DNA of 6,260 bases, taken from assembly GCA_023379515.1 (NCBI GenBank), contig JAMCQQ010000525.1, forward strand, positions 1 through 6,260. The letters run 5' to 3'. Of the stretch, positions 1-6,260 are shown in pieces; positions within the stretch are counted from its first letter, which is position 1; the number at the start of each line of letters is the position of its first letter. Origin of the DNA: Actinomycetota bacterium. GTDB taxonomy: Bacteria > Actinomycetota > Humimicrobiia > Humimicrobiales > Humimicrobiaceae. The notes under the pieces are model-generated. The model saw only the letters and a list, made by a program, of their open reading frames with translations. It made no database searches and was not told where the DNA came from. A program made the position numbers and the translations under genes.

Positions 1-604
1 AAATTATAAAAAGAAATAGAGCTGATAATAAAATAATTATACCGTGGTACAGATAATAATATATTGCACTAAGTCCAGGCCAGCCGATCTTGCCTCCGAC
101 AAAGGTGGTGGCATTATCTAAAAACCACCAGTCCCAAGTCATGTTTTTAAGGCCCTCTGTAGCGACGCTGATAAATTTAGATGTCATTCCTTTTTGTGTA
201 AAAGCAGATATTGTTTCAGGGTATGCCTTAAGAAGCAAAAAATAAGGCGGGAGGGCTAGGAGCAACACCTTATACTTTTTTGAGACAAATCTAATGATCG
301 CTTTAAAATTCCGAACAATATTAATTAGCAGCGCAAGCATTGATGACAAGAGTAAAATAAAGCCTAATTCATGAAACCTGAAAGATAATACGGCAAATAA
401 GAAAGCCATTATTATATAAAGATTATCATTTTTTTTTGTTCCCAAGTAGATTAGGGTAAGTGTAGGAATGGTAAATGCAATGTTGAGTGTTTCCGGTCTA
501 ACTTCTTCATTCATAATAATAAGCATGGGAGAAGAAAGTATCATTAGTACAGATAGATTGGCCAATGAGCTGTTCTTGTCTTTAACTAAAGGTAATGTAA
601 AGAA
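1..604 (-). CDS. 3' part of a frameshifted GT-C-like membrane glycosyltransferase (partial, runs off the window)
   Basis: The minus strand is open from just after a TGA at 605-607 down to base 1, with no stop in about 200 codons. It lies one frame away from the gene at 582-1226. The first in-frame ATG is at 542-544, well inside hydrophobic coding sequence, and no convincing ribosome site precedes it, so I read this as the continuation of that gene and not as a separate one. The translation is a string of membrane segments (for example a stretch beginning NLYIIMAFLFAVLSF and another beginning KVLLLALPPYFLLL). Loops carry RPETLN, FRFHELGF and TWDWWFLDN, which look like the polar loops of lipid-linked-sugar-dependent GT-C enzymes. 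The C-terminus lies beyond the window. The frame continuity is seen directly; the enzyme class is inferred from topology and motif style, with no named subfamily. Confidence 0.62.
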
Positions 605-1226
605 TCAGCGGGGTAAAGATTTTAAAATAGCCGATATAGTTCCAACCTGCTACATAATGTGAGCTCGCAATAAGAAAAGGAGCTGCGTCTCTGCCTGCAA
701 ACAAACTGCCATTGTCGATGCCTGTCCTTATTATGTTGTTGTAAGCTACAAAATAATGCAAAGAATCAATATCATATACATAAGGATTGAGAATCAATCT
801 AATTACAAAAAAGATAATTGGAATGAATAGAATTATCAGAAAATGTTTATTTAGCGTAATATATTTAAAAGAAATGTTTTTTAAATTGATTTTTGTCTTG
901 TCATAAAAAATAGATACTATTGCTAATATCACATTAATGATAATTATAAAAGAAACTAAATTAAATTCGAGAAGGTTTAAACTATTTCGAATGATTAAAT
1001 AAATAATCGATAGCACACTGATGGAAGCGAGAATGTCTAAAGGCAGCCTTACATACCATTCGACTTTTTGTCGTTTGCTAAATAAAACTGAATTTAAGTT
1101 GTGACCAGGTAAATAATAAAGAAGCAGAGTTCCTGGGACTATCTTAATCCAGTCCATGCCGAATTTTTCCGCCAAAATATAAGCTCCTGCGAATGCTAAC
1201 AGAGTTAAAAAATTTATGAGAAACAT
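582..1226 (-). CDS. 5' part of the frameshifted GT-C-like membrane glycosyltransferase
   Basis: A 214-codon frame starting at an ATG with an AGGA ribosome site 5 nt upstream. The product is strongly hydrophobic, with membrane segments around residues 2-20, 60-80, 90-108 and 128-146. Residues 37-60 (YYLPGHNLNSVLF, then a short basic loop and R60) resemble the PG...LF...R pattern common near the N-terminus of large bacterial envelope membrane proteins. After the fourth segment comes NPYVYDIDSLHY (147-158), followed by an AYNNIIRTG stretch. An acidic DxD (D152, D154) in the first large external loop is typical of GT-C glycosyltransferases that take sugar from polyprenyl phosphate. The frame stops at TAA 582-584, but coding character resumes at once in the +1 frame and continues to base 1, so this is only the front of a gene of more than 400 codons. 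Family assignment is inference. Confidence 0.72.
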   Translation of the reverse strand: MFLINFLTLLAFAGAYILAEKFGMDWIKIVPGTLLLYYLPGHNLNSVLFSKRQKVEWYVRLPLDILASISVLSIIYLIIRNSLNLLEFNLVSFIIIINVILAIVSIFYDKTKINLKNISFKYITLNKHFLIILFIPIIFFVIRLILNPYVYDIDSLHYFVAYNNIIRTGIDNGSLFAGRDAAPFLIASSHYVAGWNYIGYFKIFTPLILYITFS

Positions 1227-1385: not shown

Positions 1386-1625
1386 TTGATTAAAAATAAA
1401 TTTAAAAAAACAATAGGCAAAACAATAATTTTTATTATTCTATGTCTCTGGTTTATCTCTTTGGTGCCAGGTCTTTTATTAGAAAGACAAGAAATCATAA
1501 ATCGATATAATCAATTTGGCAGAAAATCGCAGGCTCAAAAAGAAGAAGAGGCAATTCGTATATCTTCCCCTGGACAGATTGTTAATGAATATATAATCCA
1601 AACTAAAAATGATAGACATAATTAA
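1386..1625 (+). CDS. small single-pass membrane protein, function unknown
   Basis: A 79-residue product with a basic N-terminus (KNKFKKTIGK), one membrane segment at about residues 13-33, and a charged, probably helical tail (ERQEIINRY, QAQKEEEAIRI). The positive-inside rule puts the tail outside the cytoplasm. It is not recognised as a known family. The layout (short cytoplasmic start, one helix, charged tail) is like FtsB/DivIC division proteins, but I see no clear family motif and do not make that assignment. The start is TTG; GGA lies 6 nt upstream, and no other ATG, GTG or TTG is available in the frame, which is open back to 1320. The gene follows a good promoter and overlaps the next gene by 17 nt, which supports it being real and first in the operon. 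The opposite-strand frame here (1286-1498) is taken as a shadow. Confidence 0.55.
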   Translation: MIKNKFKKTIGKTIIFIILCLWFISLVPGLLLERQEIINRYNQFGRKSQAQKEEEAIRISSPGQIVNEYIIQTKNDRHN

Positions 1626-2982
1626 ATTAGCACTGATTACGTTTTACATTTATTTTGTAGGGTATTGTGTAATAAACATTATACTCATAAAACTTAAAGA
1701 CAAAATGTCGGTGTATAATTTTATTGGTTTGTCGGGGATTGTTGGGATAGGTGCGATAAGCTTTGAGTTGTTTTTTTTATATTTATTTAAAATACCGTGG
1801 CGAACCGAAGTCCTATTCGTGCCCTGGCTAATGGTTTTTACTTGGCTTTTAATCACAAAACGTCTTGGTCTAAGGATAGTAAAGCCAGTAGTATTAAATT
1901 ATTTAACTATTTTATTTATTTTTCTTCTAACAATAGTTCTGATTGGTTGGGTTTTAACTAATCCAGCTTATGGTTTTGATGGATGGGCAATTTGGAGTTT
2001 TAAAGCAAAGATATTTTATTTACGAGAAACTATTCCACTTGATTTTTTAAAGCAACCAGATTTTTTTATATTTATTAATAGCAATTATGTTATCCTCTTA
2101 CCTCTTATTCAGGCATGGATATATCTGCATCTAGGTCATATGCAGACGAGCTATGCGCAAGTAATTTATATCATCACTTATGCGAGTATGCTCTTAATAT
2201 CCCTAGATTTTTTCAAATCCGTTTCTAAGAATAAAACAATCCCCGGTGCTTTAGTTCTAATGCTTGCGTTAATGCCATGGCTTGTTGAAAATTCCCAGAA
2301 AAATTATGCTGATATAATATTAGCCGTTTATTTAGTTTCTGGTTTTGCTTTTTTAATTCATTGGCTTAAGGGTGAAAGTAATTATTATTTATGGTTCTCC
2401 TCTCTTTTGTTCGGGTTTGGCGCATTCACAAAGAATGAGGGAATAATTATATATATAATATTTATAATTTTTATGTGTTTTCATTTATTGTATTTGCAAA
2501 AGAAACCATTTTTTTCTACACTCCGACAAACTTCAAAACCTATTTTGATAAGTTCTATCGTATGGTTGGTTTGGACATTATTTTCGAAGTTTAATAATCT
2601 TAATACTATTATGACTTCGACTAATCTAACAATTGATTATACTTTAAGCCACTATAAAATGAGATTGTTTGTTATATTTAAGGCGATAATTAATGAAACA
2701 GTACTGCGCTATACTCATTGGGGCCTAACTTGGCCGTTATTCATTTTCCTTTTTATTGTTGCTCTATTTGCAGGGGTTAAAACGGTAAAATATTATTTGT
2801 TTATTTTTATAATTATTGCAGTCTACATAGCTATATATTTTTATACGCCCTTAAATCTCCAACAACAACTTAACACATCTCTAGATCGACTAGTTTTGCA
2901 AATTACGCCTTGTGCCATTTTGCTTTCAGGATATACACTGTTAAAATTATGGGATAAAATTAGTAGCGTGAAGCAAAAATGA
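1609..2982 (+). CDS. GT-C-type membrane glycosyltransferase (ArnT/PMT-like fold)
   Basis: A 457-residue protein with about ten or more membrane segments. Several motifs fit bacterial GT-C transferases of the dolichyl-phosphate-mannose transferase type, which move sugar from polyprenyl phosphate to an acceptor on the outer face of the membrane. The first external loop carries GFDGWAIWSFKAK (residues 122-134), with D124 as the likely catalytic acid; NSNYVILLPLIQAW follows at 157-170. YAD at 233-235 is a second acidic position, TKNEG sits at 274-278 after a membrane segment, and SLDRLVLQITP at 424-434 resembles the conserved C-terminal SxDR...P stretch. The ATG at 1609 lacks a ribosome site and overlaps the previous gene by 17 nt, so it is probably translated by coupling. 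The stop shares ATGA with the next gene. Class is well supported; sugar and acceptor are unknown. Confidence 0.8.
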   Translation: MIDIIKLALITFYIYFVGYCVINIILIKLKDKMSVYNFIGLSGIVGIGAISFELFFLYLFKIPWRTEVLFVPWLMVFTWLLITKRLGLRIVKPVVLNYLTILFIFLLTIVLIGWVLTNPAYGFDGWAIWSFKAKIFYLRETIPLDFLKQPDFFIFINSNYVILLPLIQAWIYLHLGHMQTSYAQVIYIITYASMLLISLDFFKSVSKNKTIPGALVLMLALMPWLVENSQKNYADIILAVYLVSGFAFLIHWLKGESNYYLWFSSLLFGFGAFTKNEGIIIYIIFIIFMCFHLLYLQKKPFFSTLRQTSKPILISSIVWLVWTLFSKFNNLNTIMTSTNLTIDYTLSHYKMRLFVIFKAIINETVLRYTHWGLTWPLFIFLFIVALFAGVKTVKYYLFIFIIIAVYIAIYFYTPLNLQQQLNTSLDRLVLQITPCAILLSGYTLLKLWDKISSVKQK

Positions 2983-4703
2983 AAAAGTTTTCAACTATAT
3001 CAATTATCGTCCCTTTATATAATGAAGAGAGTACGATAAAAGAAATTATCTCGATTATTAGGAAGGCAGATACTCTTGGGCTTAAAAAGGAGATAATTTT
3101 AGTTGACGATTGTTCAAATGACGACAGCTTAAAAATACTCAAAAGCCTCAAATTAGCAGATTGCAAGATATTTCATCATGACAAAAATCAAGGCAAAGGC
3201 GCTGCATTAAGGACTGGCTTTAGTAAAGCTAGCGGCGATATAATTCTAATTCAGGATGCCGATTTAGAGTATGATCCGAATGAATATCCAAATTTGCTCA
3301 AGCCGATTCTTGATGACCGAGCTGACGTTGTGTTTGGTTCACGATTCATGGGAGGCGCTCCGCATCGAGTTCTATATTACTGGCACATGATTGCCAATAG
3401 ATTTTTAACCACTCTTTCAAATATTTTCTCAGACTTAAATCTAACCGACATGGAAACCTGCTATAAAGTATTTAAAAAGGAAGTGATCAAATTAATTAAT
3501 ATAGAGGAAGATCGTTTTGGCATGGAGCCGGAAATTACTGCTAAATTAGGTGAATTGGTCAGAACTAATAAGACGAGAGTTTATGAAGTCGGTGTTTCTT
3601 ATTACGGTCGCACTTATGAAGAAGGAAAGAAAATCGGCTACAAAGATGCAATTCGGGCTTTTTGGTGCATTTTATATTACAATAACTCCAATTTTGCTGT
3701 TGCCTGCAAATATTTTATTAATGGATTACTTGTTGCGCTGGCTCAATTTGTCGCTATGGTAATTTTGGTTGAGGTTTTGCATTTTAATTCAATTCTAATG
3801 CAAAATATTGCAAACATAATTAGTATAGAATTTGCGATTCTGGTTGCTTTTTATCTACATTCAACCATCACTTGGCGTAAACGCTATAGCGCAAGAAGAG
3901 AATTAATAAAAGTTTTTTTTCTTTTTCAATTAATCACTATCACATCGGTCATTGTCCGGATAGTTGTCTTTTATCTTTTATCTAAATCGGGAATGGAATA
4001 CTCTCTAAATACTTTAATCGGGATTGTAATTGCCATTGCAATAAATTTTCTGGGATATAAAAATATTTTTTCTAAGCTGGCAACTGGTAAGAAAAAAGAA
4101 AAAAATAATGCAACCAGAGGGTATGGATTGCTTGAAAATTTTCTGGCTCGAAAGCGCGCTAATCTTGCCTGTCATATGATCAAAAAGAATGACAAAAAGG
4201 GGGCAATCTTGGATCTTGGCTGTGGAACTCAACCAGTTTTTTTAACTATCGCAAAATCATTTACAAAAAGATATGGTTTAGACCAGGTAATTGATAGTCA
4301 AAATATCGAACTAGATGGAAAGTCAAAAATTATATTAAAAAAATGGGACATGGCATCCAATAAATTACCTTTCGAAGATAACCGTTTTGATGTTGTTAGC
4401 TTGCTTGCTGTAATCGAACATTTTGACCGCATATCGACAACAAAAATTCTTAAGGAAACAAAGCGTGTTTTAAAAGACGAAGGCATGGTCATAATAACTA
4501 CGCCATCTCGCTGGACAGAGAAACTTCTCAAATTTCTTGCTTATATTCGGGTGGTTAGCCCTGAAGAAATTGAAGAACATAAAGAACAATTTACTCGTTC
4601 TGCACTGACTGAAATTTTAAAAAGAACTGGCTTTAAAACCAAGACGATTTCAAGCGGTTCTTTTGAATTGACTGCTAATCTTTGGGCAATAGCTAAAAAA
4701 TAG
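2979..4703 (+). CDS. three-domain fusion: GT2 polyprenyl-phosphate glycosyltransferase, GtrA-like membrane domain, SAM methyltransferase
   Basis: A 574-residue protein, continuous in one frame. Residues 1-235 are a GT2 glycosyltransferase of the polyprenyl-phosphate sugar synthase (DPM1) type: VPLYNEE 11-17, LVDDCSND 41-48, NQGKGAA 70-76, metal-binding QDADLEYDP 92-100, GSR 120-122, ETCYK 159-163, EPEITAKL 183-190 and GRTYEEGKKIGYKD 210-223. Residues about 240-366 are a GtrA-like four-helix domain (helices near 245-265, 275-296, 310-334 and 343-360, with STITWR 295-300 and INFLGYKNIF 355-364). Residues about 380-574 are a class I methyltransferase: LDLGCGT 411-417 for SAM binding, D435, LPFEDNRFDVV 463-473, IEHF 479-482, RVLKDEG 496-502 and TTPS 507-510. 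Its substrate cannot be told. The ATG overlaps the previous stop as ATGA. GT2-GtrA fusions are familiar; the added methyltransferase is the unusual part. Confidence 0.9.
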   Translation: MKKFSTISIIVPLYNEESTIKEIISIIRKADTLGLKKEIILVDDCSNDDSLKILKSLKLADCKIFHHDKNQGKGAALRTGFSKASGDIILIQDADLEYDPNEYPNLLKPILDDRADVVFGSRFMGGAPHRVLYYWHMIANRFLTTLSNIFSDLNLTDMETCYKVFKKEVIKLINIEEDRFGMEPEITAKLGELVRTNKTRVYEVGVSYYGRTYEEGKKIGYKDAIRAFWCILYYNNSNFAVACKYFINGLLVALAQFVAMVILVEVLHFNSILMQNIANIISIEFAILVAFYLHSTITWRKRYSARRELIKVFFLFQLITITSVIVRIVVFYLLSKSGMEYSLNTLIGIVIAIAINFLGYKNIFSKLATGKKKEKNNATRGYGLLENFLARKRANLACHMIKKNDKKGAILDLGCGTQPVFLTIAKSFTKRYGLDQVIDSQNIELDGKSKIILKKWDMASNKLPFEDNRFDVVSLLAVIEHFDRISTTKILKETKRVLKDEGMVIITTPSRWTEKLLKFLAYIRVVSPEEIEEHKEQFTRSALTEILKRTGFKTKTISSGSFELTANLWAIAKK

Positions 4704-4719: not shown

Positions 4720-5658
4720 ATGAGACATTATTTAGTAACTGGCGGAGCTGGTTTTATCGGTTCAAACTTAATAGCAAGATTGCTTGAATCTAAAGATAAT
4801 AAGGTTACCTGTATGGACAATTTACTTACAGGTAAAAAAGAAAATATCAACGGTTTTATTAGCAATCCGAATTTTAATTTTATTAAGTGCGATATTATTA
4901 AGCCATTCAGTATAGATGACAAATTGGACTATGTGATTAATCTAGCTTGCCCGGCTTCGCCGATGGATTACCGCAAAAACCCAATTGAAACATTGGAAGC
5001 TAGTAGTATTGGAACTAGAAATATGCTTGAGATTGCTCGCGAGAATAAAGCCAGATTTTTTCATACTTCGACCTCAGAAGTTTATGGTGATCCGAAAGAA
5101 CATCCCCAAAAAGAAACTTATTGGGGTAATGTGAATTCATACGGCGAAAGATCTTGTTATGATGAAGCCAAGTTCCGCAAGTTAGCTCTAATATACTATT
5201 ATAAGCATGATTTTAGAGTTGATACTGGAATTATTCGGATTTTTAATACATATGGTCCAAAAATGCAACCAAATGATGGAAGAGTGGTTTCAACTTTTAT
5301 TCGCCAAGCGTTAAAAGGGGAAGACTTAACTATTTTTGGTGATGGAAAACAAACTAGATCATTTTGTTACATTGAAGATCAGGTAGATGCACAGATAAAA
5401 GCAATCCATTCAAACATCGAGGGACCAATTAATGTTGGAAATCCAGAAGAATTCACTATGATTGAATTAGCACAAAAAATATTGAAATTAACTAAATCAA
5501 ATTCCAGGATGGTTTTTAAAAAATTGCCCAAGGATGATCCAACTCAAAGGTGTCCTGATATATCAAAAGCAAAAAAACTGTTAAACTGGGAGCCCAAAGT
5601 GAAGCTTGAAGAAGGTTTAAAGCAAACTATTATCTGGTTTAAAGGTATTGGCTATTAG
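4720..5658 (+). CDS. UDP-glucuronate decarboxylase (UDP-xylose synthase)
   Basis: A 312-residue short-chain dehydrogenase/reductase of the extended type, the usual length for soluble bacterial UXS with no membrane anchor. It converts UDP-glucuronate to UDP-xylose and CO2 using bound NAD, in the cytoplasm. The Rossmann motif TGGAGFIG is at 7-14 with D33 for the adenosine ribose. ACPASP at 76-81, TSTSEVYGDP at 116-125, HPQKETYWGNVN at 128-139 and RSCYDEAK at 144-151 are diagnostic for this family as against UDP-glucose 4-epimerases or dTDP-glucose dehydratases. The active-site set is S119, E120, Y147, K151, and R277 in DDPTQRCPD. FNTYGPKM 175-182 and GDGKQTRSF 207-215 line the substrate site. 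The gene begins 16 bp after the preceding stop with no good ribosome site, and precedes the enzyme that makes its substrate. Specificity is well supported by these motifs. Confidence 0.93.
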   Translation: MRHYLVTGGAGFIGSNLIARLLESKDNKVTCMDNLLTGKKENINGFISNPNFNFIKCDIIKPFSIDDKLDYVINLACPASPMDYRKNPIETLEASSIGTRNMLEIARENKARFFHTSTSEVYGDPKEHPQKETYWGNVNSYGERSCYDEAKFRKLALIYYYKHDFRVDTGIIRIFNTYGPKMQPNDGRVVSTFIRQALKGEDLTIFGDGKQTRSFCYIEDQVDAQIKAIHSNIEGPINVGNPEEFTMIELAQKILKLTKSNSRMVFKKLPKDDPTQRCPDISKAKKLLNWEPKVKLEEGLKQTIIWFKGIGY

Positions 5659-5662
5659 TCTT

Positions 5663-5667
5663 GGAGG
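5663..5667 (+). promoter_or_regulatory. ribosome binding site that fixes the start of the UDP-glucose dehydrogenase gene
   Basis: GGAGG lies 5 nt before ATG at 5673. This is the strongest ribosome site in the window and rules against the in-frame TTG at 5661, which would place the site inside the coding sequence and add four residues (MEEN) before the usual MRVVVIGTGYVG start of the family. Confidence 0.8.
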
Positions 5668-5672
5668 AAAAT

Positions 5673-6218
5673 ATGCGGGTTGTTGTGATCGGCACGGGTT
5701 ATGTTGGGCTAGTACAAGGAGTTTGTCTTGCGGAACTTGGCAATAATGTTGTTTGTATTGATATTGACCAAAATAAAATTGATAAATTAAAGAAGGGTAT
5801 TTCACCGATCTACGAACCGGGTATAAATGAGTTAATTAAGAAAAATCTAGCAATTGATCGAATAAAATTTGATATCTCATTTGATAAATATTTGGATGAA
5901 GCGGAGATTATTTTCTGTGCGGTAGGTACGCCGCAAGGAGAAAATGGAGCAGCAGAGCTTAAGTATGTATTAGCTTTTGCTGAAGAAATAGGTAAAAAAT
6001 TAAAAAATTATAAAATTATTGTTAATAAAAGTACAGTACCTGTAGGAACCAACAGAATAGTCCAAAAGAAAATTGCTGAATATTATAAAGGCAAATTTGA
6101 TATTCTTTCCAACCCCGAATTCTTAAAAGAAGGATTGGCAATTGAGGATTTTATGCACCCAGACAGAATCGACGCATGCATCGATAGGATTATCGACTAC
6201 TTTGACTTGCGGCATTAA
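5673..6218 (+). CDS. ugd: UDP-glucose 6-dehydrogenase, N-terminal part only, cut by an inverted join
   Basis: The family oxidises UDP-glucose to UDP-glucuronate with two NAD, in the cytoplasm, supplying the decarboxylase encoded just upstream. The frame has 181 codons, whereas complete enzymes have about 430-450. Residues 1-166 are normal: NAD-binding GTGYVG 7-12, D30, YEPG 47-50, VGTP 84-87, STVPVGT 120-126, NPEFLKEG 147-154 and HPDRI 162-166. After I166 the family pattern (VIG...) is lost; the last 15 residues match nothing expected and are the antisense reading of a C-terminal UGD segment (6168-6260, minus strand). The catalytic cysteine region, central helix and UDP-binding domain are absent, so the product as it stands cannot be active. 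The start is set by GGAGG at 5663-5667. Enzyme identity is secure; whether the break exists in the organism is not. Confidence 0.9.
   Translation: MRVVVIGTGYVGLVQGVCLAELGNNVVCIDIDQNKIDKLKKGISPIYEPGINELIKKNLAIDRIKFDISFDKYLDEAEIIFCAVGTPQGENGAAELKYVLAFAEEIGKKLKNYKIIVNKSTVPVGTNRIVQKKIAEYYKGKFDILSNPEFLKEGLAIEDFMHPDRIDACIDRIIDYFDLRH
6168..6185. repeat. imperfect palindrome at the inverted join
   Basis: The 18 bases ATCGACGCATGCATCGAT pair with themselves on the other strand at all positions except one pair (6173 with 6180), centred on GCATGC. The normal plus-strand UGD reading ends at its left edge (6170), and the antisense UGD fragment reaches the same bases. Seen directly; its role as the joining site is inferred. 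Confidence 0.7.
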
Positions 6219-6260
6219 TTTTTGCAAATTTTCTCCAGCTACCGGATCATAAGCAATAAT
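6168..6260 (-). pseudogene. fragment of the UDP-glucose 6-dehydrogenase C-terminal domain in inverted orientation
   Basis: From the window end the minus strand reads, in one open frame of 31 codons, IIAYDPVAGENL followed by QKLMPQVKVVDNPIDACVD. This matches the start of the UDP-binding C-terminal domain of UGD, where the family shows V.AYDPVA.EN, then P.V and an A...AD region ahead of the TEW motif. Past 6168 the reading runs into the antisense of the plus-strand HPDR codons and loses sense. In an intact gene this segment would lie roughly 600 bases downstream of 6170 on the plus strand. The rest of the inverted piece, if any, lies outside the window. Confidence 0.75.

What the first reader, a model, noticed from the sequence alone, without database searches (positions are those of the whole stretch)
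6120..6260. UDP-glucose dehydrogenase is joined to an inverted piece of its own C-terminal domain
The plus strand encodes a textbook UGD up to HPDRI (6156-6170) and then collapses. The last 93 bases, on the minus strand, encode AYDPVAGEN..., a recognisable piece of the UGD C-terminal domain. Two parts of one gene that should lie about 600 bases apart on the same strand are adjacent and head-to-head, with the middle (including the catalytic cysteine) missing. The likely cause is a fold-back chimera from multiple displacement amplification or a misassembly near a contig end. A real chromosomal inversion is also possible. An automatic annotation would silently report a short UGD.
Basis: partly seen in the sequence, partly recalled or inferred. 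Interest (0 to 1): 0.75.

Follow-up and report, generated by a model that had tools for sequence, protein, structure and literature searches.

The report
Amplification chimera inside a sugar-enzyme gene
The end of this DNA piece joins the front of an ordinary bacterial gene (UDP-glucose dehydrogenase) to a backwards scrap of the same gene, most likely a laboratory amplification artefact, because the unbroken protein is found on another contig; it matters only as a warning about false short genes.

Summary
Plus-strand 5673-6170 encodes residues 1-166 of a UDP-glucose dehydrogenase (UGD); the last 93-97 bases, read on the minus strand, encode residues 345-376 of the same protein. The decisive evidence is database protein P0255, an intact 433-aa UGD on a different, 22,383-bp contig. 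It is identical to the window over 166 of 166 N-terminal and 32 of 32 C-terminal residues, with the expected 178-residue middle (including the GGSCFPKD motif) between them. The window is itself a whole 6,260-bp contig; its protein is listed as a 181-aa UGD with a 15-residue nonsense tail. The junction lies on 4, 6 or 8 nt of shared sequence within 6164-6171. An inverted join with an intervening deletion and a few shared bases is the signature described for multiple displacement amplification (MDA) chimeras (PMC1855051). I call it a physical fold-back chimera (0.93), with MDA as its source inferred at about 0.65. A real intragenic inversion in part of the population is not excluded (about 0.04). 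The host looks like a Patescibacteria (Berkelbacteria-like) bacterium, by similarity. Ordinary; scored low.

The parts
5673..6170 (+). UDP-glucose dehydrogenase, native N-terminal part (residues 1-166, NAD-binding domain)
   Evidence: PF03721 E 1.7e-60; 166 of 166 identical to P0255
6164..6171 (.). junction: CAGAATCG, within which both parents share 4, 6 or 8 nt depending on one unknown native codon
   Evidence: deduced from the residues that flank each part in P0255 and the genetic code; native DNA not seen
6165..6260 (-). inverted piece of the same gene's C-terminal domain (residues 345-376); the bases from 6172 on can only come from this side, 6164-6171 are in whole or part shared
   Evidence: 32 of 32 identical to P0255 residues 345-376; gapless placement in A3; edges
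6171..6218 (+). spurious 15-codon tail and stop that give the predicted 181-aa 'short UGD'; antisense of the C-terminal piece
   Evidence: ORF list; listed as P0121, 181 aa, contig 6260
4720..5658 (+). SDR-family sugar epimerase/dehydratase directly upstream (context; same neighbour in L005 and L007)
   Evidence: PF16363 and PF01370; SDR-like ORF upstream of UGD in 2 of 7 loci examined, scores 955 and 1138

Best explanation
The contig end is a fold-back (inverted-with-deletion) chimera. During DNA amplification a 3' end within the UGD gene, set free by branch migration or strand displacement, annealed through 4-8 complementary bases (within CAGAATCG) to a strand of opposite polarity about 630 bases away in the same gene and was extended along it. 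The chimeric molecule was sequenced and assembled as the end of a 6,260-bp contig, and gene calling gave a false 181-aa UGD. Shown: the two parts, their orientation, the missing middle, an intact version elsewhere, bounds on the shared bases. Inferred: the molecular event, that it happened in vitro, and that MDA was the reaction.
For: Intact 433-aa P0255 on a separate 22,383-bp contig is identical over both parts and carries the middle. The window is a whole contig (P0121, longest contig 6260) and the junction lies 93-97 bases from its end. Within the window no inverted repeat of 25 nt or more touches the junction; the only pair there in a finer search of 5600-6260 is a 12-nt-arm palindrome, no more than chance gives. 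Shared bases are 4, 6 or 8 nt; of 200,000 random inverted joins in this window 2.6% share at least 4 nt, 0.32% at least 6, 0.046% at least 8. In a single-cell MDA study 406 of 475 chimeras were inverted, 337 of those 406 joined segments under 10 kb apart, and 76.8% of chimeras had at least 2 and up to 21 complementary bases (PMC1855051), about one junction per 22 kb. The 30 best genome loci (L005-L034) have stop-free frames of 429-540 codons over the UGD match, so an unbroken UGD is the rule in kin.
Against: No reads, coverage or sample metadata are available, so neither MDA nor an in-vitro origin is shown directly. P0255 carries no source name, so I cannot say whether it comes from the same assembly. 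The DNA of its contig was not reached, so identity is at protein level only and the shared length is bracketed, not measured. 4-nt sharing, the low end, is only mildly unusual for a random join (2.6%).
Confidence: 0.93

Rival explanations
1. A real inversion of about 630 bp inside UGD in part of the population, leaving the gene broken in those cells; P0255 would be the uninverted allele.
For: One junction alone looks the same for an inversion and a fold-back; both forms could coexist.
Against: Only 4-8 nt shared at the breakpoint and no longer inverted repeat there; the contig stops 93-97 bases past the junction; 166 of 166 and 32 of 32 identical residues leave no sign of decay. No search for inverted UGD copies in kin was made; one listed match (G009) has stops inside, which is not an inversion signature.
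Confidence: 0.04
2. Pure assembly error: clean reads of one intact gene joined wrongly.
For: Contig-end position.
Against: The parents share at most 8 nt at the join, far below the k-mers or overlaps assemblers use (general knowledge); a chimeric read or molecule is needed.
Confidence: 0.03
3. A chimera of another preparation step (library or PCR template switching) rather than MDA. This is a sub-case of the best explanation's artefact class, so its figure overlaps with it.
For: The same geometry is possible; the source protocol is unknown.
Against: Inverted joins with deletion within 10 kb are the dominant MDA class.
Confidence: 0.3

Closest known systems
Inverted-with-deletion chimeras of multiple displacement amplification (Lasken and Stockwell 2007, PMC1855051; abstract, Results and Discussion read)
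   Same: Second segment inverted, intervening sequence lost, segments under 10 kb apart, a few complementary bases at the join.
   Different: Known there from reads against a reference with MDA known; here from one contig end and an intact protein, MDA unknown.
Bacterial UDP-glucose 6-dehydrogenase (PF03721 + PF00984 + PF03720)
   Same: N-terminal domain and C-terminal piece are this enzyme's.
   Different: Middle domain and catalytic cysteine motif absent from the window; C-terminal piece on the wrong strand; the 181-aa product is not a native protein.
Site-specific or repeat-mediated invertible DNA (phase variation; recalled)
   Same: Would also place an inverted segment inside a sugar-nucleotide gene.
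   Different: No inverted repeat of useful length at the visible breakpoint and no recombinase among the window frames scanned with Pfam; the other breakpoint is outside the window.

Membership tests
MDA inverted chimera | second segment inverted relative to the genome | tested here: met
   tblastn of intact P0255: 1-166 plus, 345-376 minus
MDA inverted chimera | intervening deletion, segments under 10 kb apart | tested here: met
   residues 167-344 missing; breakpoints about 630 nt apart by residue positions in P0255
MDA inverted chimera | short complementary bases (2-21 in 76.8% of chimeras) at the join | tested here: met
   4, 6 or 8 nt by codon possibilities; not measured on native DNA
MDA inverted chimera | DNA was amplified with phi29 polymerase | not testable with these tools
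   no sample metadata; no own genome held
MDA inverted chimera | intact arrangement exists in the source genome | tested here: inconclusive
   intact P0255 identical over 198 of 198 compared residues, but its source is not named, so same genome is inferred
Functional UDP-glucose dehydrogenase | complete three-domain protein with catalytic cysteine motif | tested here: not met
   of 13 listed Pfam families only PF03721 passes its curated cut-off; residues 167-344 with GGSCFPKD have no match in the window
Repeat-mediated invertible element | inverted repeats flanking the inverted segment | tested here: inconclusive
   visible breakpoint has 4-8 shared nt and an 18-nt near-palindrome no more common in the window than chance; the other breakpoint is outside the window

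The most novel reading that the evidence does not exclude
A genuine intragenic inversion that switches off UGD in a subpopulation of an uncultivated Patescibacteria lineage, a microhomology-mediated on/off change in a sugar-nucleotide gene.
Probability: 0.04. Interest if true: 0.4.

Novelty: not a real feature. Interest (0 to 1): 0.08.

Why it matters
It is an explained artefact. Its use is practical: a fold-back join at a contig end produced a plausible 'short UGD' that the protein database used here lists as a protein (P0121), and one search with an alignment of relatives recovered the intact version. Contig-end truncations with an antisense remnant of the same gene could be flagged automatically.

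Tried and rejected
Family and PDB-sequence searches with the C-terminal fragment alone gave nothing useful. The window's own genome is not held. The exact junction word has 0 matches in viral contigs; a viral-contig scan with the N-terminal part gave two UGD loci, 55% and 40% identical. Genome-contig scans with the UGD part did not complete; the one answered used the glycosyltransferase and returned a single distant locus, which served to reach related genomes. A protein search seeded with the two viral-contig UGDs and the two window pieces (best 120 of 8,000 scored listed) was not compared further, except for the exact-string test. Searches around the closest genomes (1, 4, 7, 13 and 55 genomes) found nothing above 66% identity.

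The near-palindrome at 6168-6185 looked like a possible cause, but one such 18-mer is seen in the window where 2.08 are expected on average in 200 Markov-simulated sequences, so I dropped it.

I considered whether the contig ends exactly one assembly word past the junction. The distance from the left edge of the shared bases to the contig end is 93, 95 or 97 nt, and single-cell assemblies with k = 25, 55, 95 are described (passages of PMC11253033 and PMC6142677). But both passages also say that 200 bp are trimmed off each end, which speaks against it, and the deciding codon is unknown. I give it no weight.

A hairpin self-priming version of the event (seen from the other strand, with a loop of about 600 nt) is not separated from strand exchange by one junction; PMC1855051 finds that hairpin and same-strand switching play no major role in MDA.

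Papers: PMC1855051 abstract, Results and Discussion; PMC11253033, PMC6122165, PMC4937190, PMC6142677 passages only (PMC4937190: MDA chimeras roughly once per 10 kbp); all others search listing only.

Full report
What is there. The window is one whole contig: its predicted UGD protein is listed as P0121, 181 aa, on a contig of 6260 bases. The plus strand from 5673 encodes a UGD NAD-binding domain (PF03721, E 1.7e-60, residues 1-166), and HPDRI ends at 6170. The plus frame then runs 15 more codons to a stop at 6216-6218. On the minus strand the frame from 6260 is open and reads as a piece of the UGD C-terminal domain.

Is the fragment really UGD? Alone it is too short for profile and PDB searches, so I fetched full-length relatives. 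Of 379 genomes drawn evenly from the phylum of G001 (the genome of L003, a Candidatus Staskawiczbacteria MAG; that this is Patescibacteria is recalled), 126 have a UGD N-terminal match at E <= 1e-20 and 253 do not. The closest, L005, L006 and L007, are 63-66% identical and have stop-free frames of 438, 449 and 432 codons. L007's protein matches P0241 at 100% over its length on a contig of the same size, named as from a Candidatus Berkelbacteria bacterium. The 32-residue fragment scores 86, 80 and 91 against these three, with shuffle maxima 46, 40 and 46. Over the 33 UGD frames found in 34 loci it beats all 500 shuffles in 18 and not in 15. It aligns without gaps at columns 345-376, the N-terminal part ending at 166.

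The decisive result. A search with those relatives and the two window pieces as separate rows returned P0255, 433 aa, on a contig of 22,383 bases (best 120 of 7,999 scored proteins listed). It is identical to the window over 166 of 166 N-terminal residues and 32 of 32 fragment residues; the next best N-terminal match among the 120 compared has 119 identities. Of the 360 proteins then held, two contain the N-terminal 166 residues (P0121 and P0255) and one contains the fragment (P0255). tblastn of P0255 on the window gives two matches only, 1-166 on the plus strand and 345-376 on the minus strand, both 100%; residues 167-344, with GGSCFPKD, have no match there. P0255's source column is blank, so I cannot tell whether it comes from the same assembly; same species or strain is inferred from 198 of 198 residues.

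The junction. P0255 shows which residues follow each part in the intact protein. With the genetic code this puts the right edge of the shared bases at 6171 and the left edge at 6164, 6166 or 6168, so 8, 6 or 4 nt are shared. Of 200,000 random inverted joins within this window 2.6% share at least 4 nt, 0.32% at least 6 and 0.046% at least 8. No inverted repeat of 25 nt or more touches the junction, and the 18-nt near-palindrome there is not more than chance gives.

Mechanism. In an MDA of one E. coli cell 406 of 475 chimeras were inverted, and 76.8% of chimeras had at least 2 and up to 21 complementary bases at the join (PMC1855051 Results); 337 of the 406 inversions joined segments under 10 kb apart, at about one chimeric junction per 22 kb (Discussion). 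The explanation given there is a displaced 3' end priming on a nearby strand of opposite polarity. The window fits these points. An assembler joining clean reads would need more than 8 shared nt. Seen from the other strand the event could also be hairpin self-priming with a loop of about 600 nt; one junction does not separate the two, and the paper gives hairpins no major role. MDA is inferred, not shown.

Rivals. A real inversion of the middle of the gene would give the same junction and is not excluded; it is disfavoured by the few shared bases, the lack of a longer repeat at the visible breakpoint, the contig end 93-97 bases away, and the absence of decay in either part. Other preparation chimeras remain possible and belong to the same artefact class.

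Context. An SDR-family sugar enzyme lies directly upstream of UGD (4720-5658). I looked for it in 7 of the 35 loci: a similar ORF lies directly upstream of UGD in L005 and L007 (scores 955 and 1138), while the best scores in L006, L008, L009, L010 and L035 are 39-197 within the flanks held. The window is an ordinary sugar-nucleotide and glycosyltransferase cluster of what looks like a Patescibacteria bacterium; that placement rests on similarity of UGD and its neighbour only.

Verdict.

Noticed in passing
window 2-1226, minus strand: Two abutting minus-strand open frames (582-1226 and 2-565), the second with a sub-threshold PMT_2 match (E 0.00062, 20.4 bits against a cut-off of 26.1), look like one membrane glycosyltransferase gene interrupted by a frame change near 565-610; sequencing error or pseudogene not resolved.
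   Followed up: partly
window 2979-4703, plus strand: One 574-aa frame joins a family-2 glycosyltransferase, a GtrA/DPMS membrane domain and a SAM methyltransferase; a genome-contig scan with it confirmed one relative, matching residues 1-189 at 28%.
   Followed up: partly
window 1609-2982, plus strand: 457-aa hydrophobic protein with no Pfam or NCBIfam match at E 0.001, perhaps a membrane glycosyltransferase.
   Followed up: no
protein P0122: A 243-aa database UGD whose N-terminal part runs, after KPDRIVVG, into a second near-identical copy of its own start; looks like another chimeric or misassembled UGD, in direct orientation, on a 1,241-bp contig.
   Followed up: no
G302:C1:150820-151314 and G187:C14:8007-8603: UGD N-terminal matches lying in unusually long open frames (912 and 840 codons), possible fusions or insertions; in G187 the match is in two pieces.
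   Followed up: no
P0255: Its source column is '-', although the window does not encode it; the reason is unknown, perhaps a shared or withheld source with the window.
   Followed up: no
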